Made by a program: the position numbers and the translations under genes
The notes under the pieces: model-generated
Database searches by the model: none
What the model was told of the DNA's origin: nothing
What the model saw: only the letters and a program-made list of their open reading frames with translations
Source: an uncultured Prevotella sp.
GTDB lineage: Bacteria; Bacteroidota; Bacteroidia; Bacteroidales; Bacteroidaceae
DNA: 54,088 nt
Assembly (NCBI GenBank): GCA_945787895.1
Contig: CALZJQ010000005.1
Span: forward strand, 1 to 54,088
Direction: 5' to 3'
In this document: piece by piece, positions 321-53,286 of the stretch
Position numbering within the stretch: position 1 is the first letter of the stretch
Layout: each line of letters starts with the position of its first letter

Positions 321-510
321 GGCAAGAATCAACTGTCGCGGTTTTTTTGTTTTTTTTGTTGTTTAGTTGTCTTGTTGTTTTGTGGTTTTGTTGTTTAGTT
401 ATTTAGTTATTTAGTTATTTTGTTGTTTGTCTTTGCAAATGAGTCAATTTCTATTAACAAAACCACAAGACAACAAAACAACAAAAAAAACGTGACAGTT
501 GAATCCTGCC
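321..510. repeat. Family A inverted-repeat element (A1) with an extra outer stem
   Basis: Fills most of the purM-prfA gap. The left arm (about 341-430) is almost only G and T with 8-nt units such as GTTGTTTA. The core 431-455 contains GCAAATGAGTCAATTTCTAT. The right arm (456-490) is almost only A and C. Outside the arms, 321-349 and 482-510 form a second near-perfect inverted repeat (GGCAAGAATCAACTGTC against GACAGTTGAATCCTGCC), giving a stem of nearly 30 bp at the base. Confidence 0.85.
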
Positions 511-550
511 AAACTTAAGAGATTAAAAAATGTAACCCCACCATAACCTA

Positions 551-1660
551 ATGGAGAGTAACAATATTTTGCAAAAGCTTGACGGTCTTGAGAGCCGTTA
601 TGAGGAGGTAAGTACCCTTATCACAGACCCTTCGGTCATTGCAGACCAGCAGAGGTATGTGAAATTGACAAAAGAGTATAAGGACTTAGAGGATATAGTG
701 AAACTCCGCCAGAAGTATATCAATTGTCTCGGGCAGATATCTGAGGCAAAGGATGTGCTCATGAATGAGACAGATGCTGACATGAAGGAAATGGCTCGTG
801 AGCAACTGGCAGAGAACGAGGCACTGCAACCAAATCTTGAAGAAGAGATAAAGATAGCCCTCATTCCCAAAGACCCTGAGGATGCGAAGAACGTGCAGAT
901 GGAAATCAGGGCAGGAACAGGAGGAGACGAAGCGTGTCTTTTCGCAGGTGACCTTTTCCAGATGTACAAGAGATTTTGTGAGTCAAAGGGATGGACTCTC
1001 TCTGTCACGGATGTCAGTGAAGGCGCAGTAGGTGGATTCAAGGAGATTGACTTTGCCGTGAGCGGTGATGATGTCTATGGAGTGTTGAAATACGAATCTG
1101 GAGTACACCGCGTACAACGTGTTCCTGTCACTGAGTCAAACGGACGTATGCAGACAAGTGCCGCAACCGTTGCAGTACTGCCTGAGGCTGACCCTTTTGA
1201 GGTAAGTATCAATGAGGGAGAAATCAAATGGGATACGTTCCGCTCTTCTGGTGCCGGTGGACAGAACGTCAACAAGGTTGAGTCAGGAGTCCGTGCGAGG
1301 TATATGTGGAAAAATCCAAATACCGGCGAGACGGAAGAAATCCTCATCGAGTGTACTGAAACGCGTGACCAGCCTAAAAATAAGGAGCGCGCACTTGCTC
1401 GCCTGCGTACATATATCTACGACCGTGAGCACCAGAAATACGTCGATGACATTGCTAATCGCCGCAAGAGCCTTGTATCCACTGGTGACCGTTCGGCAAA
1501 GATACGTACATATAATTTCCCTCAGGGACGTGTCACGGATCATCGTATCGGTTACACCACTCATGACTTGAGTGGTTTTCTCGGTGGCGACATTCAGGCA
1601 ATGATTGATGCACTCACGGTGGCCGAGAACGCAGAGAGAATGAAGGAGGCTGAATTGTAG
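551..1660 (+). CDS. prfA: Peptide chain release factor 1
   Basis: Class I release factor that reads UAA/UAG in the ribosomal A site and triggers peptide release. The length of 369 residues is normal for RF1. The tripeptide anticodon region reads PVT at 192-194 (RF1-type PxT, not the SPF of RF2). The catalytic GGQ lies at 236-238 in SSGAGGQNVNKVESGVR. The ATG at 551 lacks a clear Shine-Dalgarno, as is usual in Bacteroidetes. It sits between purM and pyrF on the same strand, with repeat elements on both sides. Confidence 0.97.
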   Translation: MESNNILQKLDGLESRYEEVSTLITDPSVIADQQRYVKLTKEYKDLEDIVKLRQKYINCLGQISEAKDVLMNETDADMKEMAREQLAENEALQPNLEEEIKIALIPKDPEDAKNVQMEIRAGTGGDEACLFAGDLFQMYKRFCESKGWTLSVTDVSEGAVGGFKEIDFAVSGDDVYGVLKYESGVHRVQRVPVTESNGRMQTSAATVAVLPEADPFEVSINEGEIKWDTFRSSGAGGQNVNKVESGVRARYMWKNPNTGETEEILIECTETRDQPKNKERALARLRTYIYDREHQKYVDDIANRRKSLVSTGDRSAKIRTYNFPQGRVTDHRIGYTTHDLSGFLGGDIQAMIDALTVAENAERMKEAEL

Positions 1661-1710
1661 ATAGACATTTGCATCGTGTTTGACAAAGTTTGGGGCAGTC
1701 TTTAACATCC

Positions 1711-1811
1711 TCGGTTTTGCGGTTTTGCGGTTTTACGGAGGTTTGTAACTTCCTAAAAAACTAAAAACCTAAAAAACTAAAAACCTAAAAACCGTACACC
1801 CCTAAAACCGA
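1711..1811. repeat. Family C inverted-repeat element (C1)
   Basis: The left arm is GGTTTTGC/GGTTTTAC units of 8 nt. The core CGGAGGTTTGTAACTTCC (1736-1753) is itself a small inverted repeat. The right arm is made of AAAACCTA units, and the ends TCGG and CCGA match. Its core is the short form, lacking the AAGGCTG segment seen in other family C copies. Lies 50 nt after the prfA stop. Confidence 0.8.
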
Positions 1812-1848
1812 AAAGAAACTTCATAACCTTGAGAATTTTATTTTCTAT

Positions 1849-1995
1849 ATGGCAAAATACGCTACGATAACAAGGAAAAAGGAAGAGGCTGACGACAAAA
1901 CAGTCAATGCTACAGAGTTCATTCAACGAATGATTTCCTCCCGTCGTGTGCCCGATGAAAATATTGAGTTGCCAAGGACGGAAAGGCAGAAATGA
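1849..1995 (+). CDS. Possible small protein of 48 residues, unrecognised
   Basis: ATG at 1849, TGA at 1993-1995. The product is basic and hydrophilic (MAKYATITRKKEEADD..., ending LPRTERQK) with no signal peptide or membrane helix. It sits in the same orientation between prfA and pyrF, just after element C1. Support: start, stop and composition look like a real gene, and the frame lies outside the repeat arms. Against: it is short, has no ribosome binding site, and matches no family I know. Confidence 0.45.
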   Translation: MAKYATITRKKEEADDKTVNATEFIQRMISSRRVPDENIELPRTERQK

Positions 1996-2109
1996 CTATG
2001 GAAGATTGTCTGTTAGTTACTCTGTCAGTAACCGATTTTTGATTAGCTGACACAAAAACTGCTGACACAAGAACTGTAAACCATAATAAATAACCAAACA
2101 TCAATAAAT

Positions 2110-2934
2110 ATGAACAGAGACCAACTTGTAACGGAAATATTCAGGAAAAAGAGTTTCCTATGTGTGGGACTTGACGTGGATCTCAATAAGATTCCAGAGT
2201 TTCTACTGAAGGAAGAAGACCCTATCTTTACCTTCAACAAGGCAATTATCGATGCAACAGCACCATATTGTGTGGCATATAAGCCCAATCTCGCATTCTA
2301 CGAAGCATACGGACTCAAAGGTATTGCAGCATTTGAAAAGACAATAGCGTACCTTAAAGAGAATTATCCGGAGCAGTTTGTCATTGCTGACGCAAAGCGC
2401 GGAGACATAGGCAACACTTCAAAGATGTATGCAAAGACGTTCTTTGGAGAGTATGACGTAGATGCCCTTACTGTGGCACCATACATGGGAGAGGACTCCG
2501 TAGTGCCATTCCTTGATGGATACGATGGTAAGTGGGTCATCTTGTTGGCACTTACGAGTAACAAGGGTAGTTTCGACTTCCAGCTCACAGAAGACAACAA
2601 CGGTGAACGCTTGTTTGAGAAAGTAATCAAGAAGTCCCGGCAATGGGGTGATGATGAGAACATGATGTATGTGGTAGGAGCCACAAGAGGCGAAATGTTC
2701 ACAGATATTCGCAAGGTTGCTCCAACGAGTTTCCTTCTTGTTCCTGGTGTCGGCGCACAAGGTGGCAGCTTGCAGGACGTATGCAAGTACGGAATGACTA
2801 AGGACTGTGGGCTTATAGTCAATTCATCCCGTGGCATCATCTATGCAGACAAGACAGAAAACTTTGCCCAGGCTGCTGCGGAAAGTGCAAGGAAGTTGCA
2901 GGAAGAAATGGCTGCAGAACTGGACAAACTTTGA
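2110..2934 (+). CDS. pyrF: Orotidine 5'-phosphate decarboxylase
   Basis: Last step of UMP synthesis: decarboxylates OMP to UMP in the cytoplasm. The product has 274 residues, the length of the longer, type 2 (mycobacterial/Bacteroidetes) class. The catalytic Asp-Lys-x-x-Asp motif is in [16 protein letters not shown]-terminal [14 protein letters not shown] and C-terminal [11 protein letters not shown] / [13 protein letters not shown] form the phosphate-binding end of the barrel. The start is ATG 2110. Preceded on the same strand by prfA and the small 48-residue frame. Confidence 0.97.
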
Positions 2935-2965
2935 TTTTTCCACTTTTTTTGTGACAGGGGGGAAG

Positions 2966-3123
2966 GGCTGGTTGTTGGTTGTTGGTTTTTGGTTGGAATG
3001 TAGTTTCAGGTTGTCGGTTGTTGTTTTTTGGGGGGGCGGAATGCTTGGCAAATGGAGTTTTCTCAAGAGGTGAGACTAACCTGCCAACAATCCAAAACCA
3101 ACAACCGACAACCAGGAACTACT
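2966..3123. repeat. Family B inverted-repeat element (B1) with an extra G/T tract
   Basis: Element proper 2999-3123. The left end GTAGTTTCAGGTTGTCGG mirrors the right end CCGACAACCAGGAACTAC. The core at 3047-3085 reads CAAATGGAGTTTTCTCAAGA then GGTGAGACTAACC (forward orientation). An extra G/T tract (2966-2998, units near GGTTGTT) precedes it. Lies between pyrF and the lpxD promoter. Outside it, 2935-3379 holds only the promoter at 3259. Confidence 0.8.
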
Positions 3124-3258
3124 CAATTCAGGAGAAAAATTCATGTGAACATATCCATTTGTGAATGAAAAGTCTAAAAATATGTTCATCTTATCCAAAA
3201 ACATTTATGGAAAACGCAAATAGTTTCCAATAGTTTTCGTAGATTTCGTTTTTTTTCG

Positions 3259-3266
3259 TAATTTTG
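3259..3266 (+). promoter_or_regulatory. Bacteroidetes-type promoter -7 box for lpxD
   Basis: TAATTTTG followed by CA, matching TAnnTTTG, 114 nt upstream of the lpxD ATG. The -33 region (about 3233-3238, TTTTCG) is only a weak match. It probably drives the lipid A operon. Confidence 0.5.
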
Positions 3267-3379
3267 CAACAAAATTACCCATTATCCTGTTTCGTCCACT
3301 TTGTAATTTATGACATTCAGGTCAGTACACCCTGAGTGAAACATTGGGGAAAGCAGGTTTTCGCGAAAACAATTTATAT

Positions 3380-4429: not shown

Positions 4430-4495
4430 GGCTTTCTAAGAAAGCAACAAGAATTATTTTAACTCGACACACCAAATTATTTTACACAGAAAACA

Positions 4496-5884: not shown

Positions 5885-5918
5885 CAGGTCAGGAACAGCA
5901 CGTGAGTCACTGGCTTTC

Positions 5919-6015
5919 TGTCTTTTTGTTCAGTTGTCTTGTCATTTAGTTGGTGTACTTCTCAAAGAGAATAGCTGTCAACTAAAACACTAAACAACAA
6001 GACAACAAAACCACA
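5919..6015. repeat. Family A inverted-repeat element (A2)
   Basis: The left G/T arm (TTTTTGTTCAGTTGTCTTG, 5921-5950) pairs with the right A/C arm (CACTAAACAACAAGACAAC, 5987-6005). The core 5957-5982 (CTTCTCAAAGAGAATAG) is closer to family B cores. Fills the gap between lpxC/fabZ and lpxA inside the operon, so it would be transcribed. Confidence 0.75.
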
Positions 6016-6043
6016 ATTACAGTATTTATTGAAAACCATTATT

Positions 6044-7751: not shown

Positions 7752-7884
7752 TGTAATTTCTGGTTGTAGGTTTTAGGTTGTGGGTTGTTGGTTGTTAGTC
7801 AGTTAGTCTTTCCTCTTGAGGAGGCTCCATTAGTCAGCCATTCCAGCCTACAACCTACAACCCATAATACACAACCAGTTACAC
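7752..7884. repeat. Family B inverted-repeat element (B2)
   Basis: Left end GTAATTTCTGG; the left arm has 7-nt units (GTTGTAG, GTTTTAG, GTTGTGG, GTTGTTG). The core 7796-7832 is in reverse orientation (GTCTTTCCTCTTGAGGAGGC then TCCATTAG). The right arm has units such as AACCTAC and AACCCAT and ends ACCAGTTACAC. Ends 12 nt before the ATG of the next gene. Confidence 0.85.
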
Positions 7885-12593: not shown

Positions 12594-12623
12594 AGTAGTA
12601 ATATTTTGTTGATTTGAAAAAAG

Positions 12624-12735
12624 TGCTTTGTTAGTTGTTTTGTTGTCTTGTGATTTAGTTGTATGTCTTCTCAAAAAGCGAGTCTGTCTAACCAATAACC
12701 TAAAACCTGAAACCGACAACCAGTAACTACTTACA
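12624..12735. repeat. Chimeric A/B inverted-repeat element (A3)
   Basis: The left arm is family A (GTTAGTTGTTTTGTTGTCTTG, period 8). The core 12664-12698 resembles family B (CTTCTCAAAAAGCGAGTCTG). The right arm is family B (7-nt units AACCTAA, AACCTGA, AACCGAC) with the B terminus CCAGTAACTAC. It spans the pgi leader, starting about 6 nt after the predicted -7 box on the minus strand. Confidence 0.8.
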
Positions 12736-12740
12736 CATTG

Positions 12741-12772
12741 CAAAAATACAAAGAATAATTAATATATACAAA
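12741..12772 (-). promoter_or_regulatory. Promoter for pgi
   Basis: On the minus strand the -7 box is TATTTTTG (12748-12741) and the -33 box TTTG (12772-12769), 20 nt apart, matching the TTTG-N19/20-TAnnTTTG consensus. Transcription would start near 12735, at the edge of the repeat element. Confidence 0.65.
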
Positions 12773-12840: not shown

Positions 12841-12957
12841 AGAAAGACTAACCTGTTGTTTGGTTGTTTAGTGGTTTTGTTAATGGTATTCGACTCCATT
12901 GCAATGTCAAACAGCTAAATGACAAGACAACAGTACAGACAACAAAAAAACAAAACA
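12841..12957. repeat. Family A element (A4) with a family B core remnant
   Basis: Begins with a fragment of the B core (AGAAAGACTAACC, 12841-12853). Then a G/T arm (GTTGTTTGGTTGTTTAGTGG), a reversed A core (TATTCGACTCCATTGC, 12888-12903) and an A/C arm (GACAAGACAACAGTACAGAC). Occupies the 5' leader of the secreted protein gene. Confidence 0.75.
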
Positions 12958-12967
12958 AACTAAAACT

Positions 12968-13399
12968 ATGAAAAAACTATTTATTGCTGTAATGACTCTA
13001 TTTATGAGCATCAGCGCAAACGCATTTGAGTTTGACGGAATCGACCTTAACGGCAATGTTGCGGATGTTACGAAGCAGGTAAGTGCCAAGGGGTATGCAT
13101 TTGACCAGGAAAGGAATGCCTTGAAGGGAAATTGTCAGGGCACGGAGATTTATCTTACCTTCAATTATGTAGATGTCACGGAGTCTGGTAAGATAGGTCA
13201 GCTCGTCGTAGATATTCCGATGGCGGAAGCTGATGCCTTGGAGGTAATATCCAAGACTTTCAATGTCATTTACCATCAGATAGGCAAATGTGACAAGGGT
13301 ATCTGTTATTCCGTGTCTGCCGATGGCACTACGGTAACCGTTTCAAAGATTTCCGGAGGCGTGCGCCTGACCTATAATACTTCTTATTACAAGAAATAA
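12968..13399 (+). CDS. Small secreted protein, unrecognised
   Basis: 143 residues. An N-terminal signal peptide (MKK then a hydrophobic stretch, cleavage probably after ANA at 17-19) predicts export to the periplasm. The mature part has three Cys (56, 108, 113), of which 108 and 113 could form a disulfide, and beta-rich alternation such as GQLVVDIP and TTVTVSKISGGVRLTY. No lipobox. It has its own promoter and lies convergent to gpsA. I recognise no family; the fold may be a small beta-sandwich or cystatin-like domain, which is only a guess. Confidence 0.8.
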   Translation: MKKLFIAVMTLFMSISANAFEFDGIDLNGNVADVTKQVSAKGYAFDQERNALKGNCQGTEIYLTFNYVDVTESGKIGQLVVDIPMAEADALEVISKTFNVIYHQIGKCDKGICYSVSADGTTVTVSKISGGVRLTYNTSYYKK

Positions 13400-13401
13400 T
13401 T

Positions 13402-13511
13402 GAGTGTTTCAGGTTGTTGGTTTTCGGTTGGTTTGCCTGTCTGATGGAGTATTCCTCAAGAGGCAAGTCTATCTTAACCAGCAACCTAAGACCGACAACC
13501 AGGAACTACTT
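13402..13511. repeat. Family B inverted-repeat element (B3)
   Basis: Forward core at 13438-13466 (GATGGAGTATTCCTCAAGAG then GCAAGTC). Left arm GTTGTTGGTTTTCGG, right arm AACCTAAGACCGACAACC, terminus CCAGGAACTACT. The element ends inside the TAA stop of gpsA (13510-13512) and begins 3 nt after the upstream gene, so it fills the whole convergent gap. Confidence 0.8.
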
Positions 13512-14505: not shown

Positions 14506-14525
14506 TTTTTCTCAGTTACTTAAGT

Positions 14526-14655
14526 GTTTTTTGTTGTTTAGTTGTTTAGTTGTTTAGTTGTTTAGATGATAGCTTTTCTCATTTGTAGAGACATCCAACT
14601 AAACAACAAGACAACTAAACAACAAGACAACAAGATCAACAACCTGATACTACTT
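14526..14655. repeat. Family A inverted-repeat element (A5) with B-type end
   Basis: The left arm is four near-exact copies of GTTGTTTA (14532-14564). The core 14570-14598 is reversed (GCTTTTCTCATTTGTAGAGA). The right arm is ACAACAAGACAACTAA units, and the end is CCTGATACTACTT, the terminus typical of family B. Fills the lysS-gpsA gap, ending 4 nt from the lysS stop codon. Confidence 0.85.
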
Positions 14656-17888: not shown

Positions 17889-18051
17889 AAGTAGTTCCCG
17901 GTTTTTGGTTGTGGTTTTTTGGTTATGGGTGAGATAGACTCGCCTTTTGAGAATGCCTCTTTGGGAAACATTTCAACTGGAAACCAGAAACCAATAACGG
18001 TCAGCAAATGCAAACCAACCGAAAACCGGAAACCAAAAACCAGATACTAAT
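17889..18051. repeat. Family B inverted-repeat element (B4)
   Basis: Left end AAGTAGTTCCCGG, left arm GTTTTTGGTTGTGGTTTTTTGG (7-nt units), reversed core 17926-17958 (GATAGACTCGCCTTTTGAGA). A long A/C arm ends with ACCAGATACTAA. Lies between aroB, whose stop is at 18056, and the response regulator promoter. Confidence 0.8.
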
Positions 18052-18055
18052 CCAT

Positions 18056-19138
18056 TTACCCTTCCCTGAAGAAGTCGAGTGCTTCGAGTATCTCTTCCTT
18101 TGTTGCAGTCTGGTTGATGCGGATGTCTCCAATGCCGCCCATGAGGGTGAAATTGATCAGTCCTGCGACGTTCTTCTTGTCGTGCGTCATGAGCTCCAGC
18201 AGTGCGGGATAGTCATCACAGGTTATGGGCAGGGAACCGTAGTTCTCGCGGATAAACCTTACCGTCTTGTACATTGTCTCAGAAGGAAATCCGGTTTTTC
18301 TCGTTGCGAGATACAACTCCGATATGATGCCGAAAGCCACGGCGTAGCCATGCAGGATAGGCTTGCTTATCCTTTTCGTGCCATTTTCCTGTCCAGCCAT
18401 GCGCATGGCCCATGATTCAAAGGCGTGTCCGATGGTGTGACCGAGGTTCAGGGCTTTGCGGATATTGTGCTCATGAGGGTCTTCAAGCACGACTTTTTCT
18501 TTGACTGCAACGCTTTCTGCCACCATTTTCTGCAAGACTTGCAGGTCAATGTTGTCCAAGTCGAAGTTGATGAGTTCCGCCCACATACTCTGGGAGTCGC
18601 GGTTGATGATGCCATGTTTCAGCATTTCTGCATAGCCGGAGAGTATGTTTTCCCTGTCGAGAGTCTTGAGAAACTCTGTACACAGGATGACGTATTTTGA
18701 ATCGTTGAAGACTCCTATTTCGTTCTTGAGCCCTCCGAAGTTGATGCCTGTCTTTCCTCCTACCGAGGCATCCACCATGGAGAGTAGGGTAGTGGGGATG
18801 TTGATAAAGTTGATGCCTCTTTTGAAAGTGGAGGCTGCAAAACCTCCAAGGTCGGTAATCATGCCTCCGCCGAGATTGATGAGCAGGGAGTGTCGTGTGG
18901 CTCCTCCCTCCTGAAGGCATTCCCAGACATGGGCTGTGCTTTGCAGGGTCTTTGCCACGTCAGTCGCACCTATTGTTATCATCTCTGCGCCGTTGAGACA
19001 TTCGTATTCTTTTACTACAGGCCAGCAGAGTCTTAGTGTCGTGTCATCAGTAAGTACGAAGATGCGGTCGTGCTCACAGTCTGCTATGGCGGCTGCAAGT
19101 TCTGCCTTGAGGTCTTTGGATATGATTACGCGTTGCAT
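18056..19138 (-). CDS. aroB: 3-dehydroquinate synthase
   Basis: Second step of the shikimate pathway: NAD- and metal-dependent cyclisation of DAHP to 3-dehydroquinate. 360 residues. NAD-binding GGGMITDLGGFAASTFKRG, then IPTTLLSMVDASVGGKTGIN with active-site residues, and metal ligands in the ALNLGHTIGHAFE helix. ATG at 19138, directly after element C2. Its 3' end is followed by element B4 and the two-component pair on the same strand. Confidence 0.97.
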   Translation of the reverse strand: MQRVIISKDLKAELAAAIADCEHDRIFVLTDDTTLRLCWPVVKEYECLNGAEMITIGATDVAKTLQSTAHVWECLQEGGATRHSLLINLGGGMITDLGGFAASTFKRGINFINIPTTLLSMVDASVGGKTGINFGGLKNEIGVFNDSKYVILCTEFLKTLDRENILSGYAEMLKHGIINRDSQSMWAELINFDLDNIDLQVLQKMVAESVAVKEKVVLEDPHEHNIRKALNLGHTIGHAFESWAMRMAGQENGTKRISKPILHGYAVAFGIISELYLATRKTGFPSETMYKTVRFIRENYGSLPITCDDYPALLELMTHDKKNVAGLINFTLMGGIGDIRINQTATKEEILEALDFFREG

Positions 19139-19146
19139 TTTTTCTT

Positions 19147-19262
19147 TTCGGTTGTGGGGTTTTACGGTTATGGGGTTTTACGGTTGTGGGGGTTTAATGA
19201 AATATATGAATGCAGATTGTAACTTCCGCAAAACCTCAAAACCGTAAAACCTCAAAACCGAA
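19147..19262. repeat. Family C inverted-repeat element (C2)
   Basis: The left arm has GGTTTTAC and GGTTGTGG units, forward core 19208-19240 (GCAGATTGTAACTTCCGC), right arm AAAACCTC/AAAACCGT units. The matching ends are TTCGG and CCGAA. It fills essentially the whole gap between the lyase stop codon (19263-19265) and the aroB start (19138). Confidence 0.85.
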
Positions 19263-22437: not shown

Positions 22438-22760
22438 TATACGGTTAAGAGGCTTCTGTTTCGGTCATAAGGTTATCTGTTTCGGTTATAAGGTTTTAAG
22501 GTTATAAGGTTGTGCGGAAGTTACAATCAGCCTTGGCATACCTCTGTTTAGTTGTTTAGTTGTTTGGTTGTTTAGTTGTTTGGTTGTTTAGTTGTTTGGT
22601 GGAGTGTCTTCGCAACGGAGTCGATTTCTATCAACAAAATAACAAGACAACTAAACAACAAAACAACAAGAGTGACAAACAACAAAACAACTAAACAACA
22701 AGACAACTAAACAACAAAAGTAAACCGCAAAACCACAAAACCTCTCATAACCTCATGACC
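22438..22760. repeat. Nested element: family A (A6) inside family C (C3)
   Basis: Outer family C: left arm 22440-22509 (TTTCGGTTATAAGG units), reversed core 22510-22544 (GTGCGGAAGTTACAATCAGC then CTTGGCATACCTCTG), right arm 22719-22755 (AACCGCAAAACCACAAAACC). Inserted at 22545-22718 is a full family A copy: arm with 8-nt GTTGTTTA/GTTGTTTG units, core 22603-22635 (CGCAACGGAGTCGATTTCTA), A/C arm. The outer end (reverse complement CTCTACGGTCATGAGG) encodes the last residues and stop of gph. Confidence 0.8.
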
Positions 22761-26658: not shown

Positions 26659-26766
26659 CACTATTATTTTGAATTACGTGCAGGATAACAGGAAAAAAAG
26701 CGCAGCCGGCAGACATTCCGGGTGAGAATCTTGCGTTTGCTCCATTAATGTCTCGCAATAATGATG

Positions 26767-26925
26767 TTTTCTCTATGGTTTTGCGGTTTCTCTACGGTTA
26801 TGTGGTTTTCTCTATGGTTATGTGGTTTTACGGTTTTACGGTTTTACGGAAGTTTGTAAAGGCTGATTGTAATTTCCGCACAACCGTATAACCCCATAAC
26901 CTTATAACCGAAACAGAAAACCTTA
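26767..26925. repeat. Family C inverted-repeat element (C4)
   Basis: Left end TTTCTCTATGG and internal TTTCTCTACGG, arm of GGTTTTACGGTTTTACGG (8-nt units). Forward core 26847-26880 (CGGAAGTTTGTAAAGGCTGA then TTGTAATTTCCG), right arm CAACCGTATAACCCCATAACC. Lies between the divergent maf and outer-membrane protein genes, outside both predicted leaders. Confidence 0.85.
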
Positions 26926-30805: not shown

Positions 30806-30991
30806 AAGGTTATGCGGTTGTGCGGAAGTTACAATCAGCCTTGACATACCTCCGTAGAACCGTTGGTTCGGTTGTGCGGTTATGAGGTTTTACGGTTGTG
30901 CGGAAGTTACAAACAGCCTCTTCCAATCTCCGAATAACCTTAAAACCGTAAAACTACATAACCGTAGAGAAATCTTAAGACCTTAAAACTG
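30806..30991. repeat. Double family C inverted-repeat element (C5)
   Basis: Two reversed family C cores: 30818-30853 (GTGCGGAAGTTACAATCAGC then CTTGACATACCTCCG) and 30898-30932 (GTGCGGAAGTTACAAACAGC then CTCTTCCAATCTCCG). They are separated by a G/T arm and followed by an A/C arm ending AACCGTAGAGAAA, the family C terminus. Confidence 0.85.
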
Positions 30992-33385: not shown

Positions 33386-33420
33386 AGTTTTATTTTTGTG
33401 TCGCAGGCTTCAATTTGTTC

Positions 33421-33661
33421 GGTGTTTTGTTATTTTGTTGTCTTGTTGTTTAGTTGTAGTATCAGGTTTTTGGTTGTTAGTTTTTGGTTGTTGGTTAGTT
33501 AGTCTTTTCATTTGAGAAACCTCCATTAGAAAAACAAATCAACCAACAACCTACAACCCACAACCAAAAACCAGGTACTACAACAAGACAACTAAGCAAC
33601 AAATATCAAATGTAGATTTGCCGAAGCTAGATTGTCACTTCCGCATAACCGTACAACCTAT
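33421..33661. repeat. Composite element: family B (B5) nested in family A (A7), plus partial family C (C6)
   Basis: A-type left arm 33421-33455 (TTTTGTTGTCTTGTTGTTTA). Inserted B copy 33456-33581 with ends GTAGTATCAGG and CCAGGTACTAC and reversed core 33500-33533 (AGTCTTTTCATTTGAGAAAC then CTCCATTAG). A-type right arm 33582-33603 (AACAAGACAACTAAGCAACA). A C core and right arm follow at 33611-33660 (GCTAGATTGTCACTTCCGCA). Fills the ffh-folD gap. Confidence 0.85.
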
Positions 33662-38082: not shown

Positions 38083-39072
38083 ATGCAGACCCACATCGAA
38101 ACGATTTATTCCCTACGGAGCAACATCGACTGCATACGCAGGGGAATAGGATATATCATCTACCGTCCATGGCTCACCACGAAAGTGATGGGACCGTGGG
38201 CTGTGCTCATCGCCTGCCTGTATGTCGTGTACAGATGGATGCTGGCAAAGGCTAACATCAATGCCTTGCCGACGGGAGTGTATGACATGAATGACATTGT
38301 CATGGTAGCAGTGGTTTATCCCCTGTTATGCTTTGTAACCCAACTGTTTACAGCCAGACTGTTCATCCTGTTCCGCAGGACCGAGGCTATGCTGGAACGC
38401 AAGGCTTTGGAAGAAGAAATCAACCAAGGCAAGGACGTGACCCTGCCGGAGCTGGAGACTCCTACCAAGAAAGACAAGATAAAGGAGATTGTCAGCGTCA
38501 CTGCCTCCACACTGCCGTACACCTTATGGCTGTATATCTTGGAATGTCCTTTCCTCGGTATCTCCGAATTGCTCTACGGACTCATCATGTCACAACCTAC
38601 AATGACACGCCAGTGCATGGTGGGAACAGCATTCCTTGCAGGTCTCTGCCTGCTTGCCTTCATCCTTACCACCCTCGTATATCCCATGTACAACAGGGCA
38701 ATAACGGTAAGGAACAAGCAGAAGGCCTCAGAAAGGGAGACATTCAAGAAGGGAATCAAGATAGGTTTCAGGCACAAGGGAAAGACATTTATGGTGATGA
38801 CCCTGTCTGCCATAATAGCAGTTATTCTCTGTATCGTACCTGTCCTGCCACTCGTCATTTCAGAGAATGCAGTGAGCAACAGCTTCATTTCCATGCTGAT
38901 ACACAATGACGACTCTGCCATTCCTGCCTCTGGTATGTGGCTGATGTTCGCAGTTGACACCATTTCTCTCACAGCAGCCATCATTATCAGCATCATACCT
39001 TACTCCTGCCTGCTCTATCTCTATGGCACCGTAAACGTGCATGAGAGAGAGAAGGATGGAGTTGTTGTTTAG
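38083..39072 (+). CDS. Integral membrane protein, unrecognised
   Basis: 329 residues with about six membrane segments (roughly 37-55, 70-95, 140-160, 178-200, 230-256, 285-312) and a charged cytoplasmic stretch around 100-130 ([26 protein letters not shown]). No catalytic motif seen. Starts 5 nt after valS, so it is cotranscribed, but the link may be positional. Its last residues and stop (GVVV, TAG at 39070-39072) are read from the start of repeat element A8, so the natural C-terminus was probably extended or replaced by the repeat. Confidence 0.75.
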
Positions 39073-39244
39073 TGGTTTGGTGGTTTTGTTCTTTAGTTGT
39101 TTAGTTGTTTGGTGGTTTTGTTGTTTGGTACACAATGGAATCGAATTCTATCAACAAACAACTACACAAACAACTACACAAACAACTAAACAACCAAACC
39201 ACCAAACAACAAAACAACTAAACAACCAAACAACAAACCAAGCA
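39061..39244. repeat. Family A inverted-repeat element (A8)
   Basis: G/T left arm 39061-39128 (GTTTAGTTGTTTAGTTGTTT), core 39130-39155 (CACAATGGAATCGAATTCTA), long A/C right arm to 39236 (AACAACTACACAAACAACTA...). It carries the stop codon of the upstream gene and ends at the hisB ATG. In one frame it is fully open and falsely extends hisB by 68 residues. Confidence 0.9.
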
Positions 39245-40315
39245 ATGAAGAAGATATTATTCATAGACCGTGACGGAACGCTCATACGTGAGCCGGAAGA
39301 CGAACAGATAGACTCTTTCGAGAAACTGGTATTCGTAGATGGGGTGTTTCGCAACCTCAGTTTCATCAGAAAAAACCTTGACTTTGAATTTGTAATGGTC
39401 AGCAATCAGGACGGTCTCGGCACGGACTCTTTCCCCGAAGACACCTTCTGGCCTGTACACAACTTCATACTTCAGACTCTGAAAGGAGAGGGAATAGAGT
39501 TTGACAGACAGTTCATCGACCCGCATTTCCCAGAAGACAACCATCCTAACCGCAAGCCTGGAACGGGAATGCTCACCGAATACATTGAAAATCCGGAGTA
39601 TGACCTCGCAGGTTCATACGTCATTGGTGACCGTGAGAGCGATGCACAACTGGCAGAAAACCTCGGATGCAAGTCACTCATCCTCGGCCGAGACGGAATG
39701 AACTGGGACAAGATTGCCGAGATATTGTTTGCCGGTGAGCGTATCGTGGAAATGACAAGGACGACACATGAGACTGACATTACCGTAAGAATCAACCTCG
39801 ACGGCACAGGAAAATGTGACATACAGACGGGACTTGGGTTCTTCGACCACATGCTGGAGCAGATAGGACGCCACGGAATGATGGATCTGTACGTCAGATG
39901 CAACGGCGACCTGCACGTAGATGAGCATCATACTATCGAAGATACAGGCATCGTACTCGGTGAATGTCTCCTTAAAGCTCTCGGCGACAAGAGAGGTATC
40001 GAGCGGTATGGTTACACGCTTCCTATGGACGACTGCCTGTGTCAAGTAGCTCTCGACTTTGGCGGAAGACCTTGGTTAGTATGGGATGCAGAGTTTAAGC
40101 GCGAAAAAATAGGCGAAATGCCTACTGAGATGTTCCCGCATTTCTTCAAGAGTGTCAGCGATGCTTCAAGAATGAACCTCAACATCAAGGCCGAAGGCAC
40201 TAACGAACACCATAAGATAGAGGGTATCTTCAAGGCTTTCGCCCGCTCTGTACGCATGGCAGTGAAGCGTGACATATACCACTATCAACTGCCCTCTACC
40301 AAAGGCGCACTGTAA
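39245..40315 (+). CDS. hisB: Bifunctional histidinol-phosphatase / imidazoleglycerol-phosphate dehydratase
   Basis: Two steps of histidine synthesis in one chain of 356 residues. The N-terminal HAD phosphatase (1-165) has FIDRDGT with Asp8 and Asp10 and a Cys/His-type zinc loop replaced by [16 protein letters not shown]. The C-terminal dehydratase (170-356) has the metal-binding [13 protein letters not shown] and the later [13 protein letters not shown] 39245 ([12 protein letters not shown]) is chosen over a longer frame through the repeat. No other his gene is near. Confidence 0.95.
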
Positions 40316-44975: not shown

Positions 44976-44984
44976 TTAAGTAGG

Positions 44985-45142
44985 GGGGGATTGTCTTGTT
45001 TGTCTTGTTGTCTTGTTGTCTTGTTGTTTGGTTGTTTGTCAGTCTTGTTGTTTTGTTGTTTTGTTGTTTTGTTGTTTGTCTGCGCAATGGAGACGGATGC
45101 ATCCCACCAAACAACTAAACAACCAAACAACTAAACAACAAA
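44985..45142. repeat. Family A inverted-repeat element (A9)
   Basis: Long G/T arm 44990-45078 made of GTTGTCTT and GTTGTTTT units of 8 nt. Core 45080-45108 (GCGCAATGGAGACGGATGCA). Shorter A/C arm 45109-45142 (CAAACAACTAAACAACC). The left arm is more than twice the right. Fills the gap between DUF5606 and the antiporter gene. Confidence 0.85.
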
Positions 45143-47227: not shown

Positions 47228-47235
47228 CGTCCGGC

Positions 47236-47553: not shown

Positions 47554-47593
47554 AGTTTTTATGTTGATAATGTTACTTAAGTTTCGCAAGCTT

Positions 47594-47719
47594 CAACTTC
47601 TGGCTTTAGTTTTGGGTTTTTGGTTTTGGGTTTTTGGTTAATTAGTCTTTCCTCTTGAGAAAGCTCCATTAGAAAAGCTAACCAACCCAAAACTCACACA
47701 ACCCACAACCAGGAAACTG
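47594..47719. repeat. Family B inverted-repeat element (B7)
   Basis: The left arm is clean 7-nt repeats (GTTTTGG, GTTTTTG alternating). Reversed core 47642-47674 (TTAGTCTTTCCTCTTGAGAA then AGCTCCATTAG). Right arm AACCAACCCAAAACTCACAC, terminus CCAGGAAACTG. Inside the core, CTTTC and GAAAG form an apical hairpin. Lies between nusB and yajC. Confidence 0.85.
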
Positions 47720-47808
47720 AGCAAGTCAGAGTCTTGCGAAAGTAGAATAAATATTAATAATGTGCAGAATCATTACTGTAATGAGAGAGACACTTCCCGA
47801 CGGCGGCC

Positions 47809-48850: not shown

Positions 48851-48897
48851 TAATCTTCATGATTTTAATCATTTTTTTGCAGTTTTTGCCTGCAATC

Positions 48898-48929: not shown

Positions 48930-48944
48930 CACCGCTTTTTTGAG

Positions 48945-48973: not shown

Positions 48974-49030
48974 ATGGCGAATTAAGCAATGACACTTATC
49001 GTTTAACAACTTAATTTAGAGTAACACATC

Positions 49031-49627: not shown

Positions 49628-49744
49628 TCGCTCTCTTTTGACACTCAATAAAAAAAGCCTTATCGGACGCTCTTGGTTCTTCCTTGGGCGTCCGAAATCG
49701 TAATGGGCGGGCTGGAATTATCGTCACACGCACAAGGAAAAAGA

Positions 49745-50308
49745 ATGGAAAAATATTTAATAGTAGGACTTGGCAATCCAGGGCCTGAATATCATGAGAC
49801 GAGACACAATGCAGGCTGGATGGTCGCAGACAGTTTCGTAAGGGAACAGAATGCCGAATTTGCAGAAAAACGATACGGATACGTAGCAGAGACGAGCATA
49901 AAGGGACGTAAACTCTTTGTACTCAAGCCGACGACATACATGAATCTCAGTGGCAACGCCGTGAGATACTGGCTTGAGAAGGAAAACATCCCCAACGAGC
50001 ATCTGCTTGTGGTAGTAGATGACCTTGCCCTGCCTCTTGGAAAGATGCGCCTCAGGGCGTCGGGCAGCAATGGAGGACACAACGGTCTGGGACATATCCA
50101 GCAGCTGATAGGTCAGAATTATTCCCGCCTCCGTATCGGCATAGGCAGCGAGTTCGGACTAGGACAGCAGATTGACTGGGTGCTGGGTAAGTTCAGTGAA
50201 GAAGACAAGGAAGCCTTACGGCCTTGCATAGACACTGCCAGGGACATAATCAAGAGCTTCGTGCTTGCCGGTGTCAACGTCACCATGAACCAGTTCAACA
50301 AGAAGTAG
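49745..50308 (+). CDS. pth: Peptidyl-tRNA hydrolase
   Basis: Releases tRNA from stalled peptidyl-tRNA. 187 residues. [22 protein letters not shown] carries Asn and the catalytic His; then [43 protein letters not shown] with the Asp and Asn of the active site. ATG 49745 ([10 protein letters not shown]) chosen over a GTG- or TTG-started extension. A short CGGACGC/GCGTCCG hairpin (49664-49694) lies between rplY and pth. Confidence 0.96.
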
Positions 50309-50346
50309 TCATTCCCTCATGTCTCTTTGTCTTGTCGGAAGTATAT

Positions 50347-50509
50347 GGTTGTAGTACCTGGTTTTTGGTTTTTGGTTGATTTGCTTTTCTAATGGAGGTT
50401 TCTCAAATGAAAAGACTAACTAACCAAAAAACTGGTACTACAACCAAACAACCAAACAACCAAACAACCAAACAACTAAACAACTAAACAACAAGAGTGG
50501 CAAACAACA
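50347..50509. repeat. Family B element (B8) joined to a family A right arm
   Basis: B copy 50347-50455 with the cleanest ends: GGTTGTAGTACC and GGTACTACAACC are exact reverse complements. Forward core 50387-50420 (TTTTCTAATGGAGGTTTCTC then AAATGAAAAGACTAAC). It is followed by an A-type right arm (50455-50509, AACAACCAAACAACC units) with no left partner. The arm ends in ACAAGAGTGGCAAACAAC, which contains the GTG start of the next gene. Confidence 0.85.
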
Positions 50510-50946
50510 ACAATTCAGACGAAAGGAACTCCGCACGTATAGACAAATGGCTCTGGGCTGTACGGATATTCAAGACACGCAGCATCGCAGCTGATGCCTG
50601 CAAGAATGGCAGAGTTACCAAGAACGGTGTGAGCATAAAGCCGAGCCACGTAGTAAAAGCCGGGGAAACGGTCAGCGTAAAAAAGCCTCCCATCACCTAT
50701 TCTTTCAAGATACTGAAGGCAATAGAAAACCGTGTGGGAGCAAAACTCTTGCCCGAAATATACGAAAACGTCACTGAAGCCAAACAATACGAACTTCTTG
50801 AGATGTCACGTATAAGCGGTTTCGTTGATAGGGCAAGGGGAACAGGCAGACCTACCAAGAAGGACCGCAGGGCTATGGATGCCTTCATCGACCCGGCTGT
50901 CTTCGGCTTTGACGATGAGGACGACCTTGACTTGGAGGAGGATTAG
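50497..50946 (+). CDS. S4-domain RNA-binding protein, Hsp15-like
   Basis: 149 residues. The S4 domain at 14-75 (RIDKWLWAVRIFKTRSIAADACKNGRV, NGVSIKPSHVVKAGETV) matches heat shock protein 15, which binds free 50S subunits carrying nascent chains. The C-terminus is acidic (FDDEDDLDLEED). The start is GTG 50497; the first residues (ANNNNSDERN) are coded by the edge of a repeat arm. The stop overlaps the protease gene on the other strand by 4 nt. Confidence 0.88.
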   Translation: MANNNNSDERNSARIDKWLWAVRIFKTRSIAADACKNGRVTKNGVSIKPSHVVKAGETVSVKKPPITYSFKILKAIENRVGAKLLPEIYENVTEAKQYELLEMSRISGFVDRARGTGRPTKKDRRAMDAFIDPAVFGFDDEDDLDLEED

Positions 50947-53075
50947 GGTTGTGAGAAGTTTCTGACCACCTTTCTTACGACACCACGTTCATCAACGGCA
51001 AAGAAAATTCCACGAAGCCCTTCAACGGAACGGATCCTTCTGCCGTTGATGTCGTAATAATATTTCACCTTTCCCGAACGGACATCCTCTCTCAACGCCA
51101 CATCCGTGATACCACAATACTCCGAAAGCACATAGTCAAGACCGGCCTTGGCATCTATCTCTCCCCATCCATAATCATTGTTTGGATAATCCATGCCCGG
51201 CTTTCTTTGTGACGTATTCTGGATGACCTGAAGTACCTGCTCAGGTGTCAGCGTAGGACAAGCATCCAACCACAAGGCGATGACACCAGTGACGACGGGG
51301 GTTGACATTGAGGTTCCCGTCAGTGCCGTCCAAGCATAGGTACGACCTTCATAGACAAATCGTTCCACATCAACGTCTGCATGGCTTTCCGGGAATTTCT
51401 CCAAATAGAAAGAACTGTTTGCAGATACTATATTCTCTCCCGGGGCTACTACATCAGGCTTGATGAAACCCTGTATCGTAGGTCCCATGCTGCTGAAGTC
51501 CGACTTTTCCCCTTCCACATCGGTCCTGAAACTGATGGCTTTCCCTTCGTGATTGAGCAACGTGCGGGTATATGTTGTCGAGCCTACACAAATTACATTC
51601 TTTGAAGCACCGGGAAACAGTATCAGATGACCTGTCTCAGCCGTCTTGGAATCGGCGCACAGCGTCTTGTTGGCCTTTAGCTCCCCACGCACGGAATAGA
51701 CATCTATCTCCGTCTCCTTGCCATTCAGCGTCAGCAGGACATGGGGCTCAGCGCCTATGGAGCCTTCACCTAATCTGGTAAGGTAAAACTCCGCCCCCCA
51801 CTCGTCGGCATCCAGTCCGGAAGGATATACGCAATACAGCACCTGAAACCTCGTGCCCTTCACTTCAATGGTGTCAACTACAATGCTGTCTTCCGCATTG
51901 AGTACATTGTCGAAGTCGTAAGTCATCGTCACCCTGTCTCCATTGTAATAGATAAAATCGAGCGACAGCCGAAACCTGGCGTCAGCCCTGAGGAACATCG
52001 TCTCTTCTCCCCACCACGAATGTATGAAAGTAGATAGATGGTCTTCACCCTTGTTTTTGCGAAGATACGTCCTGCTTCTGCCATCGTTGCCAGCCGAAGC
52101 GCATATTATCCTTCCCGGGCCAAGGAGTTTCTCCACGGCCTCGTAGTACATTGTCTCTCCATAGAAATCCTCATATCTGCCCTCGCTGAAATTTATCACG
52201 CACGGCTTTCCCTGCCTGTCTGCATAGTCAAAGATATACTTGAAGCCGAGAATATCCATTGCATCGGAATACAGCAGCCTGTCTTCTTCGTCAACGACAT
52301 CCTTGTTGTCTCCACTGTAGTTGCACACGAGACAAATGTCTGCATCCGGGGCTATTCCCCTGTAGCGGCTGCACGTCCTGCCGTCCCATCCGCTTCCTGC
52401 CGCAATGGCAGAGGTGTGGGTGCCGTGAACCCCCAAAAGACAGTCCCTTGTATGCTGCAGGGCGAGTATGTCCTCCTGCCCTAGATATTGCCTTCCCACA
52501 GGCAACGGGCTGTCTTCGCTGTCCTTCTCAGCCAACTGGTCCCACAATGCCTTGATGCGGCAGCTCTTGCCGTCAGTCGTCCTGAAGGTGGGATGGGTGA
52601 GGTCAAAACATATATCCTGCACTCCTACAATGACATTCCTTCCCGTATATCCCCCTGCATTCGTCAAGCCGTTCTCCCCCCTGCCCTCATGTACCTTGTC
52701 TGCCCTGACTACGTATCCTGTAGTATCCATTGTGACTTTGCATGGACTGCCTGCCTCTATCCTTTTTATCTCTGGCAGGAGAGAGAGTGCTGACAATTTG
52801 GAAAGAGGTATTCTTGCGATGTGGATATCGTCAAGGGACTCAAGCACCCTGCACCCCTCGCTCTCCAGCACATCGGTGTCACCGCACCTTACAAATGCCA
52901 CGACACACTTTCCGCTCCCCTTTCCTTCATTAAGTTCCTTGGCTTTCGAGACATTCCGTGCCTGTCCTATCGCCATCCTTCTCAGTGACGGCGACAGCTT
53001 TGAGTAATCAGCCTTTTGTGAAAAGACGGGAATGGCGTTGAGCAGGAGAATCAGTGCAATCGATACGACTTTCAT
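50943..53075 (-). CDS. Secreted subtilisin-like serine protease (S8 family)
   Basis: 710 residues. Signal peptide 1-19 (ends PVFS). Propeptide-like region to about 120. Catalytic Asp154 (VGVQDICFDLTHPTF), His217 (GVHGTHTSAIAAG), oxyanion Asn330 (CASAGNDG) and Ser589 (GTSMSTPVVTGV). A long insertion (about 340-500), beta-rich, separates Asn and Ser. The C-terminal 50 residues (VKYYYDINGRRIRSVEGLRGIFFAVDE) resemble Prevotella C-terminal sorting tails (YDxxGRxV then Gly-Ile-x-hydrophobic). Predicted to act outside the cell or at its surface; substrate unknown. Confidence 0.92.
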   Translation of the reverse strand: MKVVSIALILLLNAIPVFSQKADYSKLSPSLRRMAIGQARNVSKAKELNEGKGSGKCVVAFVRCGDTDVLESEGCRVLESLDDIHIARIPLSKLSALSLLPEIKRIEAGSPCKVTMDTTGYVVRADKVHEGRGENGLTNAGGYTGRNVIVGVQDICFDLTHPTFRTTDGKSCRIKALWDQLAEKDSEDSPLPVGRQYLGQEDILALQHTRDCLLGVHGTHTSAIAAGSGWDGRTCSRYRGIAPDADICLVCNYSGDNKDVVDEEDRLLYSDAMDILGFKYIFDYADRQGKPCVINFSEGRYEDFYGETMYYEAVEKLLGPGRIICASAGNDGRSRTYLRKNKGEDHLSTFIHSWWGEETMFLRADARFRLSLDFIYYNGDRVTMTYDFDNVLNAEDSIVVDTIEVKGTRFQVLYCVYPSGLDADEWGAEFYLTRLGEGSIGAEPHVLLTLNGKETEIDVYSVRGELKANKTLCADSKTAETGHLILFPGASKNVICVGSTTYTRTLLNHEGKAISFRTDVEGEKSDFSSMGPTIQGFIKPDVVAPGENIVSANSSFYLEKFPESHADVDVERFVYEGRTYAWTALTGTSMSTPVVTGVIALWLDACPTLTPEQVLQVIQNTSQRKPGMDYPNNDYGWGEIDAKAGLDYVLSEYCGITDVALREDVRSGKVKYYYDINGRRIRSVEGLRGIFFAVDERGVVRKVVRNFSQP

Positions 53076-53079
53076 AATA

Positions 53080-53286
53080 TGTTGTTTGGTTGTTTTCTCT
53101 ATGGTTTTACGGTTTTGTGGTTTTATGTTTATTCGGAGGTTTGAAGAGGCTGTTTGTAACTTCCGTAAAACCTTTTAACCTTATAACCGTCGTTTGGTTG
53201 TTTGTTGTCTTGTTATTTAGTTGATTGCCGTCGCAATGGAGTCGATTTCTATCAACCAAACAACCAAACAACCAAACAACAAGACA
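53080..53286. repeat. Composite element: family C (C7) inside the left arm of family A (A11)
   Basis: A-type left arm starts at 53080 (GTTGTTTGGTTGT). It is interrupted by a C copy (53092-53190) with left end TTTCTCTATGG, forward core 53133-53166 (CGGAGGTTTGAAGAGGCTGT then TTGTAACTTCCG) and arm AAAACCTTTTAACC. It resumes (TTTGGTTGTTTGTTGTCTTG), then A core 53228-53255 (GTCGCAATGGAGTCGATTTC) and A/C arm to 53286. Fills the gap between the protease and the hemolysin III-like gene. Confidence 0.85.

What the first reader, a model, noticed from the sequence alone, without database searches (positions are those of the whole stretch)
321..53286. Twenty-one intergenic arm-core-arm inverted repeats of three related families
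Each repeat is a G/T-only arm, a conserved asymmetric core of 20-35 nt, and an A/C-only arm complementary to the first. Family A has 8-nt GTTGTTTA units and core GCAATGGAGTCGATTTCTAT. Family B has 7-nt GTTKTKG units and core CTAATGGAG..TTTCTCAAGAGG. Family C has 8-nt GGTTTTAC units and core CGGAGGT..AAGGCTG..TTGTAACTTCCG. Loci (approximate starts): 321, 1711, 2966, 5919, 7752, 12624, 12841, 13402, 14526, 17889, 19147, 22438, 26767, 30806, 33421, 35093, 39061, 44985, 47594, 50347, 53080. Cores occur in both orientations. That is about one per 2.6 kb, in most sizeable gaps and never wholly inside a gene. I know of no named family that fits; possible roles are transcript ends, mRNA leaders, or a MITE/REP-like element moved in trans. 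No candidate transposase is in the window.
Basis: partly seen in the sequence, partly recalled or inferred. Interest (0 to 1): 0.9.

Follow-up and report, generated by a model that had tools for sequence, protein, structure and literature searches.

The report
Foldback mobile repeats fill bacterial gaps
The gaps between genes in this Prevotella-like genome carry hundreds of short hairpin-shaped repeats; a part of them end in the recognition sequence of a known jumping-gene family (IS4, ISPepr1 type), so they are best read as small passenger elements that spread through this lineage and now sit around, and sometimes seem to end, its genes.

Summary
The repeats are real: 20 of the 21 listed loci have a G/T arm, core and A/C arm (35093 lacks the A/C arm). 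1.19 Mb of the genome holds 191 such pairs (180 after merging), against 18 in reversed order; none of the 180 cores lies in a called gene. Core orientation shows no significant bias against transcription, and arms hardly match their own partners, so they are not strand-specific terminators. In four of five orthologous gaps compared, relatives have medians of 12-54 nt without the element.
Insertion sequences with these ends (1559-1587 bp, IS4-family transposase) occur in related genomes and fit the published traits of the ISPepr1 subgroup. The end motif occurs in 134 of 399 family genomes; where read, interiors differ.
Best reading: foldback MITEs of ISPepr1-type IS with arms of degenerate 7-8-nt units. 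Most A and B elements show no frame and this assembly has no matching transposase, so their route is open. Genes followed by an element end in TAG in 57 of 120 cases, against 149 of 686 others.

The parts
340..491 (+). A element (G/T arm 340-435, core 434-458, A/C arm 456-491)
497..519 (-). degenerate outer-frame (TIR-side) end beside the A element at 340
   Evidence: frame PWM 21.9 on the right side; place read
1713..1819 (+). C element with shortened core (TTGTAACTTCCT at 1743-1754)
   Evidence: core accepted by eye
2946..3114 (+). B element, core 3049-3084
5911..6016 (.). arm-core-arm element with divergent A-like core between lpxC-fabZ and lpxA; gap median 12 nt in 76 relatives
   Evidence: core accepted by eye
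7761..7877 (-). B element, core 7798-7833, between miaA and pbp1A
12623..12752 (+). chimeric element: A-type left arm, A-like core 12665-12688, B-type right arm; no net hairpin
   Evidence: core pattern copied from this locus
12854..12977 (-). A element, core 12879-12903; A/C arm reaches the start codon at 12968
13400..13501 (+). B element, core about 13441-13463 (by eye)
14524..14644 (-). A element; hairpin z -9.5
17900..18042 (-). B element with long core region
   Evidence: classed B; one search matched only an A-variant pattern
19138..19259 (+). C element, core 19197-19228
22515..22546 (-). C core beside the A element
22545..22698 (+). A element, core 22611-22635; hairpin z -7.0
26765..26922 (+). 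C element, core 26847-26878; hairpin z -4.9
30823..30963 (-). two C elements (core ends at 30823 and 30901)
33399..33416 (+). degenerate left frame end before the element at 33414
   Evidence: PWM 21.0
33414..33610 (-). B element (core 33494-33529) whose arms continue outward as A-type units
39057..39245 (+). A element; the called gene 38083-39072 ends on a TAG inside the G/T arm
44983..45142 (+). A element, core 45083-45107
47576..47747 (+). complete framed B element: left TIR CTTAAGTTTCGCAAG, right TIR ..CTTGCGAAAGTAGAA; no intact target duplication; hairpin z -2.8 for 47601-47711
50327..50513 (+). B element (core 50389-50424) followed by an A-type A/C array running to the start codon at 50497
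53080..53290 (+). C element (core 53134-53165) followed by A element (core 53232-53256)

Best explanation
These are non-autonomous transposable elements (MITEs) of foldback type. Shown: a part of the copies end in 15-bp terminal inverted repeats (YTCAASTTTCGCAAG), more than half of the complete ones flanked by short A+T-rich target duplications that fit 7-8 bp; the same ends flank IS4-family insertion sequences of ISPepr1 type in related genomes; between the ends lie two inverted arms of degenerate 7-8-nt units around a short asymmetric core; in four of five orthologous gaps relatives have short gaps without the element. Inferred: an ISPepr1-type transposase, not found in this assembly, moved them in trans by cut-and-paste into A+T-rich sites near gene ends; the arms then grew and shrank independently by slippage; selection removed copies that broke genes. 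Also inferred: copies at 3' ends of genes are tolerated because the arms offer stop codons (the TAG of the 8-nt unit comes up in every frame), and because the A/C arm gives the next gene a weakly structured leader. For A and B copies without a frame, descent from framed copies by loss of the ends is assumed, not shown.
For: Frame shared by C, A and B; CAASTTTCGCARGNYT at up to 1 mismatch has 78 places in the genome, 1 in the reversed control. Target duplications: score >=6 in 12 of 21 complete framed copies, against 2.0% of permuted pairs; exact direct repeats of 7-10 nt in 8 of 17 complete elements from other genomes (no permutation run there). TIR motif in 134 of 399 family genomes, 20 of 30 genera, up to 46 per genome, at most 1 per genome in the reversed control. 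Of 10 loci with such a transposase, 6 have both TIRs within 1 mismatch each at 1559-1587 bp, and 3 of these 6 have exact 7-bp duplications. Transposase: NCBIfam IS4_4 392.8 bits against cut-off 250, Pfam DDE_5 and DDE_Tnp_1; YREK signature YAQRWSLEVVFKDSK read from the translation. A 142-bp MITE in G634 keeps the last 22 codons of it, 82% identical. Published ISPepr1 traits (1500-1600 bp, ends YT-AA-YTT---A, YREK, 7-8 bp duplications, AT-rich targets; PMC2266710, passages) fit. Orthologous gaps without the element. No significant core orientation bias: 43 to 33 with cores of up to 3 mismatches, 52 to 53 with up to 5. Arms not partner-matched in A and C. Stop codon use.
Against: Only 8 of 70 A, 7 of 44 B, 4 of 18 C and 2 of 48 unclassed elements show a frame end above the 99% null; of 51 C cores, 11 have both ends and 10 one. 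Over all 180 elements, direct repeats at the arm ends do not exceed permuted pairs. No matching transposase in this genome, although the assembly is only 88.9% complete. Nine of 21 complete framed copies, including the one in the window, show no convincing duplication. Of the 10 IS loci, 4 lack a clean pair of these ends: one has other ends, one no pair, one a weak pair, one is split by an insertion; 3 of the 6 clean ones show only 2-3 matching bases as duplication. 0 of 180 cores in genes asks for strong selection or unusual targeting. No same-species genome was available to see a clean filled and empty site. The ISPepr1 label is my inference from published traits; the NCBI model says only IS4.
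Confidence: 0.7

Rival explanations
1. The arm-core-arm unit of families A and B is a separate mobile or recombination-driven repeat that only sometimes got trapped inside ISPepr1 frames. It would spread without a target duplication, for example by a single-strand transposase or by recombination with pre-existing A/C arrays.
For: Most A and B elements have no detectable frame end, and over all elements there is no excess of direct repeats. B has its own outer ends AGTANCTGGTT/AACCAGNTACT (left in 24, right in 18, both in 12 of 44; with the pattern reversed 0, 2 and 0; in A elements 6, 11 and 3 of 70). Arms and cores combine freely: B inside A-type arrays at 33421 and 50347, chimera at 12624. 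Unpaired A/C arrays point at start codons in other genomes (38 of 49).
Against: A, B and C all occur inside the same frame. The only Y1/RAYT-like gene has no cores around it. No mechanism was seen acting.
Confidence: 0.35
2. Bidirectional transcription terminators or other RNA hairpins under selection.
For: Strong predicted hairpins (z -7.0, -2.8, -4.9, -9.5 for four of the five window elements tested); in 141 co-directional gaps elements begin a median 7 nt after the upstream stop codon. Arms in B match their own partner slightly better than others.
Against: Present in 17 of 69 divergent gaps but only 11 of 64 convergent and 137 of 491 co-directional gaps of at least 60 nt; sits inside the conserved lpxC-lpxA gene run; no significant core orientation bias; arm lengths uncorrelated, pairing not partner-specific in A and C; the chimera at 12624 has no hairpin.
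Confidence: 0.08
3. REP/BIME-type palindromes moved by a RAYT transposase.
For: Palindromic, intergenic, high copy number; one weak RAYT-like gene (REP_Tyr_transpos 32.4 bits against cut-off 80; Y1_Tnp below cut-off).
Against: The gene lies beside a different repeat and no GT/AC core flanks it in the 2.1 kb read. Framed copies make target duplications, which Y1 enzymes do not (recalled).
Confidence: 0.07
4. Slippage-grown octamer arrays selected as translation leaders (A/C strand before a start codon); the inverted partner is incidental.
For: Unpaired A/C arrays point to a start rather than a stop codon in 86 of 129 cases in this genome, 38 of 49 in other Prevotella-genus stretches and 16 of 20 in named relatives. 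TAACTGA heptamer arrays before start codons are known in Beggiatoaceae (PMC4679880, abstract and section 12).
Against: Does not explain the conserved cores, paired arms, frame, target duplications or the gaps without element in relatives. The other-genome stretches were chosen because they hold arrays.
Confidence: 0.2

Closest known systems
IS4 family, ISPepr1 subgroup (PMC2266710, passages read)
   Same: Ends YT-AA-YTT---A, 7-8 bp A+T-rich target duplications; full-length relatives of 1559-1587 bp with a YREK transposase
   Different: The window elements are about 100-270 bp, non-coding, with long foldback arms and a core that the IS lacks; no transposase found in this genome
BrickBuilt MITE of Porphyromonas gingivalis (PMC4596501, abstract, section 5, passages)
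   Same: Bacteroidales MITE with a tandem-repeat interior and leader/tail ends, always intergenic
   Different: 23-nt direct repeats, not inverted arms; 19 copies; IS5-type TIRs
Foldback transposons (FB, Galileo; search listing and recalled)
   Same: Long inverted repeats built of short degenerate subrepeats around a middle
   Different: Eukaryotic, kilobase-sized, moved by P- or Mutator-type transposases
PINSR of Prevotella intermedia (PMC4755523, abstract and passages)
   Same: Lineage-restricted intergenic repeat, 177-184 copies per genome
   Different: 188 bp, reported without TIRs; its consensus is in a figure that is not held, so sequences could not be compared
TAACTGA heptamer arrays (PMC4679880, abstract and section 12) and cyanobacterial STRR heptamers (recalled)
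   Same: Short repeat arrays in gaps, often just before start codons
   Different: Direct arrays; no conserved cores or TIRs that I know of
REP/BIME elements with RAYT (recalled; PMC3733652 and PMC2817692 seen in search listings)
   Same: Intergenic palindromes in high copy number
   Different: 20-40 bp, tagged ends, single-strand transposase

Membership tests
ISPepr1-type MITE (framed copies) | Terminal inverted repeats matching YT-AA-YTT---A | tested here: met
   YTCAASTTTCGCAAG in framed copies; subgroup consensus from PMC2266710
ISPepr1-type MITE (framed copies) | 7-8 bp A+T-rich target duplications | tested here: met
   12 of 21 complete copies against 2.0% of permuted pairs, 9 of 21 not convincing; 8 of 17 complete elements from other genomes have exact repeats of 7-10 nt
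ISPepr1-type MITE (framed copies) | Parent IS of 1500-1600 bp with YREK transposase and the same ends | tested here: met
   6 of 10 IS loci: 1559-1587 bp with both TIRs within 1 mismatch; IS4_4 model; YREK in the translation
ISPepr1-type MITE (framed copies) | Parent transposase in the same genome | tested here: not met
   No match in G000; the assembly is 88.9% complete, so absence is not proven. A MITE does not need a resident parent
ISPepr1-type MITE (framed copies) | Mobilised by the transposase in trans | not testable with these tools
   needs a transposition assay
ISPepr1-type MITE (A and B copies as a whole) | TIRs present | tested here: not met
   frame end in 8 of 70 A and 7 of 44 B
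ISPepr1-type MITE (A and B copies as a whole) | Target duplication | tested here: not met
   no excess over permuted pairs over all 180 elements
REP/RAYT | RAYT gene flanked by the repeats | tested here: not met
Intrinsic terminator | Strand-specific, enriched at convergent ends | tested here: not met
BrickBuilt | 23-nt direct repeats with IS5-type TIR | tested here: not met
   periods 7-8 or their doubles in 262 of 285 arms (only periods 4-20 were scored); different TIR
PINSR | Matches the 188-bp consensus | not tested
   consensus only in a figure
Foldback transposon | Inverted arms of short subrepeats | tested here: met
   an architectural likeness, not descent
Rfam RNA family | Match to a curated family | tested here: not met
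   0 matches in the window at gathering cut-offs

The most novel reading that the evidence does not exclude
The arms are an evolved 'safe landing' module. On either strand the G/T arm comes first and offers stop codons in every frame to the gene it lands behind, while the A/C arm becomes a weakly structured leader for the gene in front. This would let foldback elements settle by the hundred in short operon gaps without harming their neighbours, and in A and B the module now spreads on its own, without the ISPepr1 ends.
Probability: 0.22. Interest if true: 0.8.

Novelty: new variant of a known kind. Interest (0 to 1): 0.58.

Why it matters
It gives a candidate transposase family to a class of unexplained hairpin repeats: the end motif occurs in 20 of 30 genera of the family sampled, and in the loci read from other genomes the same ends frame differing interiors, many of them foldback arrays. 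It shows a prokaryotic genome in which such elements make up about 2% of the 1.19 Mb examined, lie in 137 of 491 co-directional gaps of at least 60 nt, and seem to have changed how neighbouring genes end. It makes testable how degenerate 7-8-nt arrays arise and spread, a question also open for Beggiatoaceae heptamers.

Tried and rejected
RAYT/Y1 transposase as mover: one weak hit, not flanked by the cores. DDE_Tnp_1, IS1595 and ISL3 transposases in this genome: none. Viral carriage of the A and C cores: the 4 and 6 hits show no arms around the match and read as chance. Rfam: nothing. tRNA: none in the window. Partner-matched arms (which would show palindrome copying or selection on pairing): own arm best in 0 of 52 A, 5 of 32 B and 1 of 17 C; median ranks 24.5, 12 and 9. 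A general strand polarity of the arms (G on the 5' side) in other genomes' elements: not significant, 29 against 20. Target duplications over all elements: not above permutation. Solo palindromes of the frame end as ancestors: 17 matches, nearly all of them frame ends already known.

Limits of counts. One search's 191 pairs became 180 after merging nested G/T segments. Eight elements at stretch edges were dropped from gap-context counts. Family labels allow up to 5 mismatches, a level that 29 of 400 random windows reach by chance (3 more matched better), so some labels are wrong; orientation was therefore recounted more strictly (20:17, 34:27 and 43:33 at up to 1, 2 and 3 mismatches). The arm-matching test used 52 A, 32 B and 17 C of the 180. 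One search kept 36 to 78 of the 80 relative loci per gap, by synteny and coverage. Gene calls are my own hexamer-based ones. About 1.13 Mb besides the window was read, of 2.76 Mb. The null came from random genome windows, which include real elements. The 399- and 398-genome counts include this genome.

Full report
Where it is. The window is a whole contig (C5) of an 88.9%-complete, 2.76-Mb assembly in 198 contigs. It belongs to a large genus; the nearest named relatives found by the LpxA protein are Candidatus Prevotella equi (86% identity) and Palleniella species (84-85%).

The observation. Twenty of the 21 listed loci show a G/T arm, core and A/C arm; 35093 does not. Core motifs exceed shuffled sequence. 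In 1,186,363 bases of the same genome, G/T-rich segments followed by A/C-rich ones number 191 (180 after merging) against 18 in the opposite order. They cover 1.9% of this DNA, with a median span of 124 nt. Arm period is 8/16 nt in 178 and 7/14 in 84 of 285 arms. Predicted hairpins are strong in four of five window elements tested and absent in the chimera at 12624.

What they are not. No core midpoint of 180 lies in a called gene. Elements sit in 137 of 491 co-directional, 17 of 69 divergent and 11 of 64 convergent gaps of at least 60 nt. Core orientation against co-directional genes is 52 same to 53 opposite with cores of up to 5 mismatches and 43 to 33, 34 to 27 and 20 to 17 with up to 3, 2 and 1: no significant bias. 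This is not the pattern of terminators or of a strand-specific RNA. Arms are no more complementary to their own partner than to arms of other elements in A (0.610 against 0.604) and C (0.435 against 0.444), slightly more in B (0.583 against 0.531), and arm lengths are uncorrelated. So pairing is mostly a by-product of a shared unit.

They were inserted in this lineage. In 80 loci of named relatives (1.46 Mb) there are 7 G/T-A/C pairs, none of these families. Four orthologous gaps have medians of 12 (lpxC-lpxA), 31 (miaA-pbp1A), 38 (to prfA) and 54 nt (prfA-pyrF), against 159, 185, 247 and 449 here (the last includes a small reading frame); the fifth, pyrF-lpxD, is longer in relatives (median 1300) than here (445). 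The C core TTGTAACTTCCG occurs 49 times here and 0-1 times in each of 59 sampled congeners. The A-arm pattern occurs 991 times here (75 in the reversed control), with fewer copies in a few congeners, most in G344 (125), G249 (55) and G021 (37); 29 of 398 genomes, this one included, have any.

The missed frame. Merged repeated 12-mers showed conserved outer ends. Left end: CTCAAGTTTCGCAAG-CTTCAACTTCTTCGG. Right end: GAAACTGAGCAAGTCACAGA-CTTGCGAAAGTTGAA. They surround C elements and some A and B elements, including 47576-47747 in the window. Of 21 complete framed copies, 12 have direct-repeat scores of at least 6 at the ends, against 2.0% of permuted pairs; the best ones fit 8 bp, A+T-rich; the other 9, the window's copy among them, do not convince. 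A frame end is detectable in 8 of 70 A, 7 of 44 B, 4 of 18 C and 2 of 48 unclassed elements. Of 51 C cores found by motif, 11 have both ends and 10 one.

The frame elsewhere. CAAGTTTCGCAAGCTTCAACTT (2 mismatches) occurs in 5 of 398 congeners, counting this genome. There it holds other interiors: GAGTAATGA units and ACTACAGAGTACAGG units (G136), GTTGACAAG units (G257), a C-like interior (G216); two of the eight loci (L245, L253) have no such long arms. The bare TIR YTCAASTTTCGCAAG occurs in 134 of 399 genomes of the family, 20 of 30 genera, up to 46 copies, at most 1 per genome in the reversed control; only some of these were read. Of 17 complete elements from other genomes, 8 have an exact direct repeat of 7-10 nt, such as TTAACTCA, TAATTATA, AAATATAA and ATCGCTTA.

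The parent. Among these loci are insertion sequences coding for a 483-aa transposase that scores 392.8 bits against NCBIfam IS4_4 (cut-off 250) and hits Pfam DDE_5 and DDE_Tnp_1. It carries the Y-x2-R-x3-E-x6-K signature (read). Of 10 loci with this transposase or its relatives, 6 have both TIRs within one mismatch each, 1559-1587 bp apart; 3 of these 6 have exact 7-bp duplications and 3 only 2-3 matching bases. Of the other 4, one has different ends, one no pair, one a weak pair, and one (G759) both ends 2.6 kb apart around an inserted element. The ISPepr1 subgroup of IS4 is described in PMC2266710 by 1500-1600 bp, ends YT-AA-YTT---A, the YREK motif, 7-8 bp duplications and AT-rich targets (passages); all fit, and the label is my inference from them. 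A 142-bp element in G634 still carries the last 22 codons of this transposase at 82% identity, which shows how such MITEs can arise. IS4_4 matches occur in 88 of 201 family genomes at E 0.001, in 11 above the cut-off, in this genome none. Of 22 genomes searched with the protein, 9 match, some weakly, among them G257, which shares the frame.

Effect on genes. Genes followed by an element end in TAG in 57 of 120 cases, against 149 of 686 others (Fisher p 1.4e-8). Counted by core position instead of arm edge, so that arm delimitation cannot bias it, the figures are 63 of 132 against 140 of 652 (p 3.3e-9). The nine bases before the stop are almost pure G/T in 13 of 121 against 12 of 684: some genes now seem to end inside an arm, as the called gene at 38083-39072 does. 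Unpaired A/C arrays point at a start rather than a stop codon in 86 of 129 cases here and 38 of 49 in sampled congeners.

How sure. That framed copies are ISPepr1-type MITEs is well supported. That all A, B and C elements descend from such copies is an inference: most A and B show no such ends, and over all 180 elements direct repeats are not above chance. The frame is shared by all three families, which favours common descent. Free mixing of arms and cores (33421, 50347, 12624) and B's own ends (24 left, 18 right of 44; 0 and 2 with the reversed pattern) favour recombination or a second route. The core's role is unknown; its unbiased orientation argues for a DNA role or none.

Known or new. 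My searches listed no description of foldback MITEs with 7-8-nt arms or of ISPepr1 MITEs in Bacteroidaceae. The nearest printed cases seen are BrickBuilt (IS5-type, 23-nt direct repeats) and PINSR (188 bp, no TIR). I call it a new variant of a known kind.

Noticed in passing
G000 at large, e.g. L033:8900, L044:18860, L054:12765: A palindrome GGTATTCTTCGACCTGGTCGAAGAATACC recurs (67 strand matches of its middle with up to 1 mismatch in 1.19 Mb, about half as many sites), sometimes inside or beside the G/T-A/C elements.
   Followed up: no
L091, and L031:7718, L049:14732, L078:2034 and others: A second repeat with ends GGTGGGTTCTATTAATTC / GAATTAATAGAACCCACC (20 matches with up to 2 mismatches to GTGGGAATTAATAGAACCCA); one end lies directly before the only RAYT-like gene found.
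   Followed up: partly
L061:5859, L069:16844, L089:10856 and others: Palindromes built of CAAAAGCGTTGATATTACC followed by GAATAGGACAAAATGA-like ends, a further intergenic repeat family.
   Followed up: no
L073:9897, L089:4057-4685, L090:5333: A ~225-nt repeat CCAACGGTTTTTATTG..GTTAACTGGACACCCTA abuts A/C arms of A, B and C type, and a second inverted-repeat frame GAAGAAAACA/TGTTTTCTTC surrounds some B elements.
   Followed up: no
L180, L183, L195, L212 (other Prevotella-genus genomes): Unpaired A/C octamer arrays lie directly before start codons in several congeners.
   Followed up: partly
window 12623-12752: Chimeric element with an A-type left arm and a B-type right arm, which does not fold.
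   Followed up: partly
L278 and L292 (closed genome G759): An IS982-like transposase reading frame seems to be inserted between the TIR and the transposase gene of an ISPepr1-type IS (the name is recalled, not searched).
   Followed up: no
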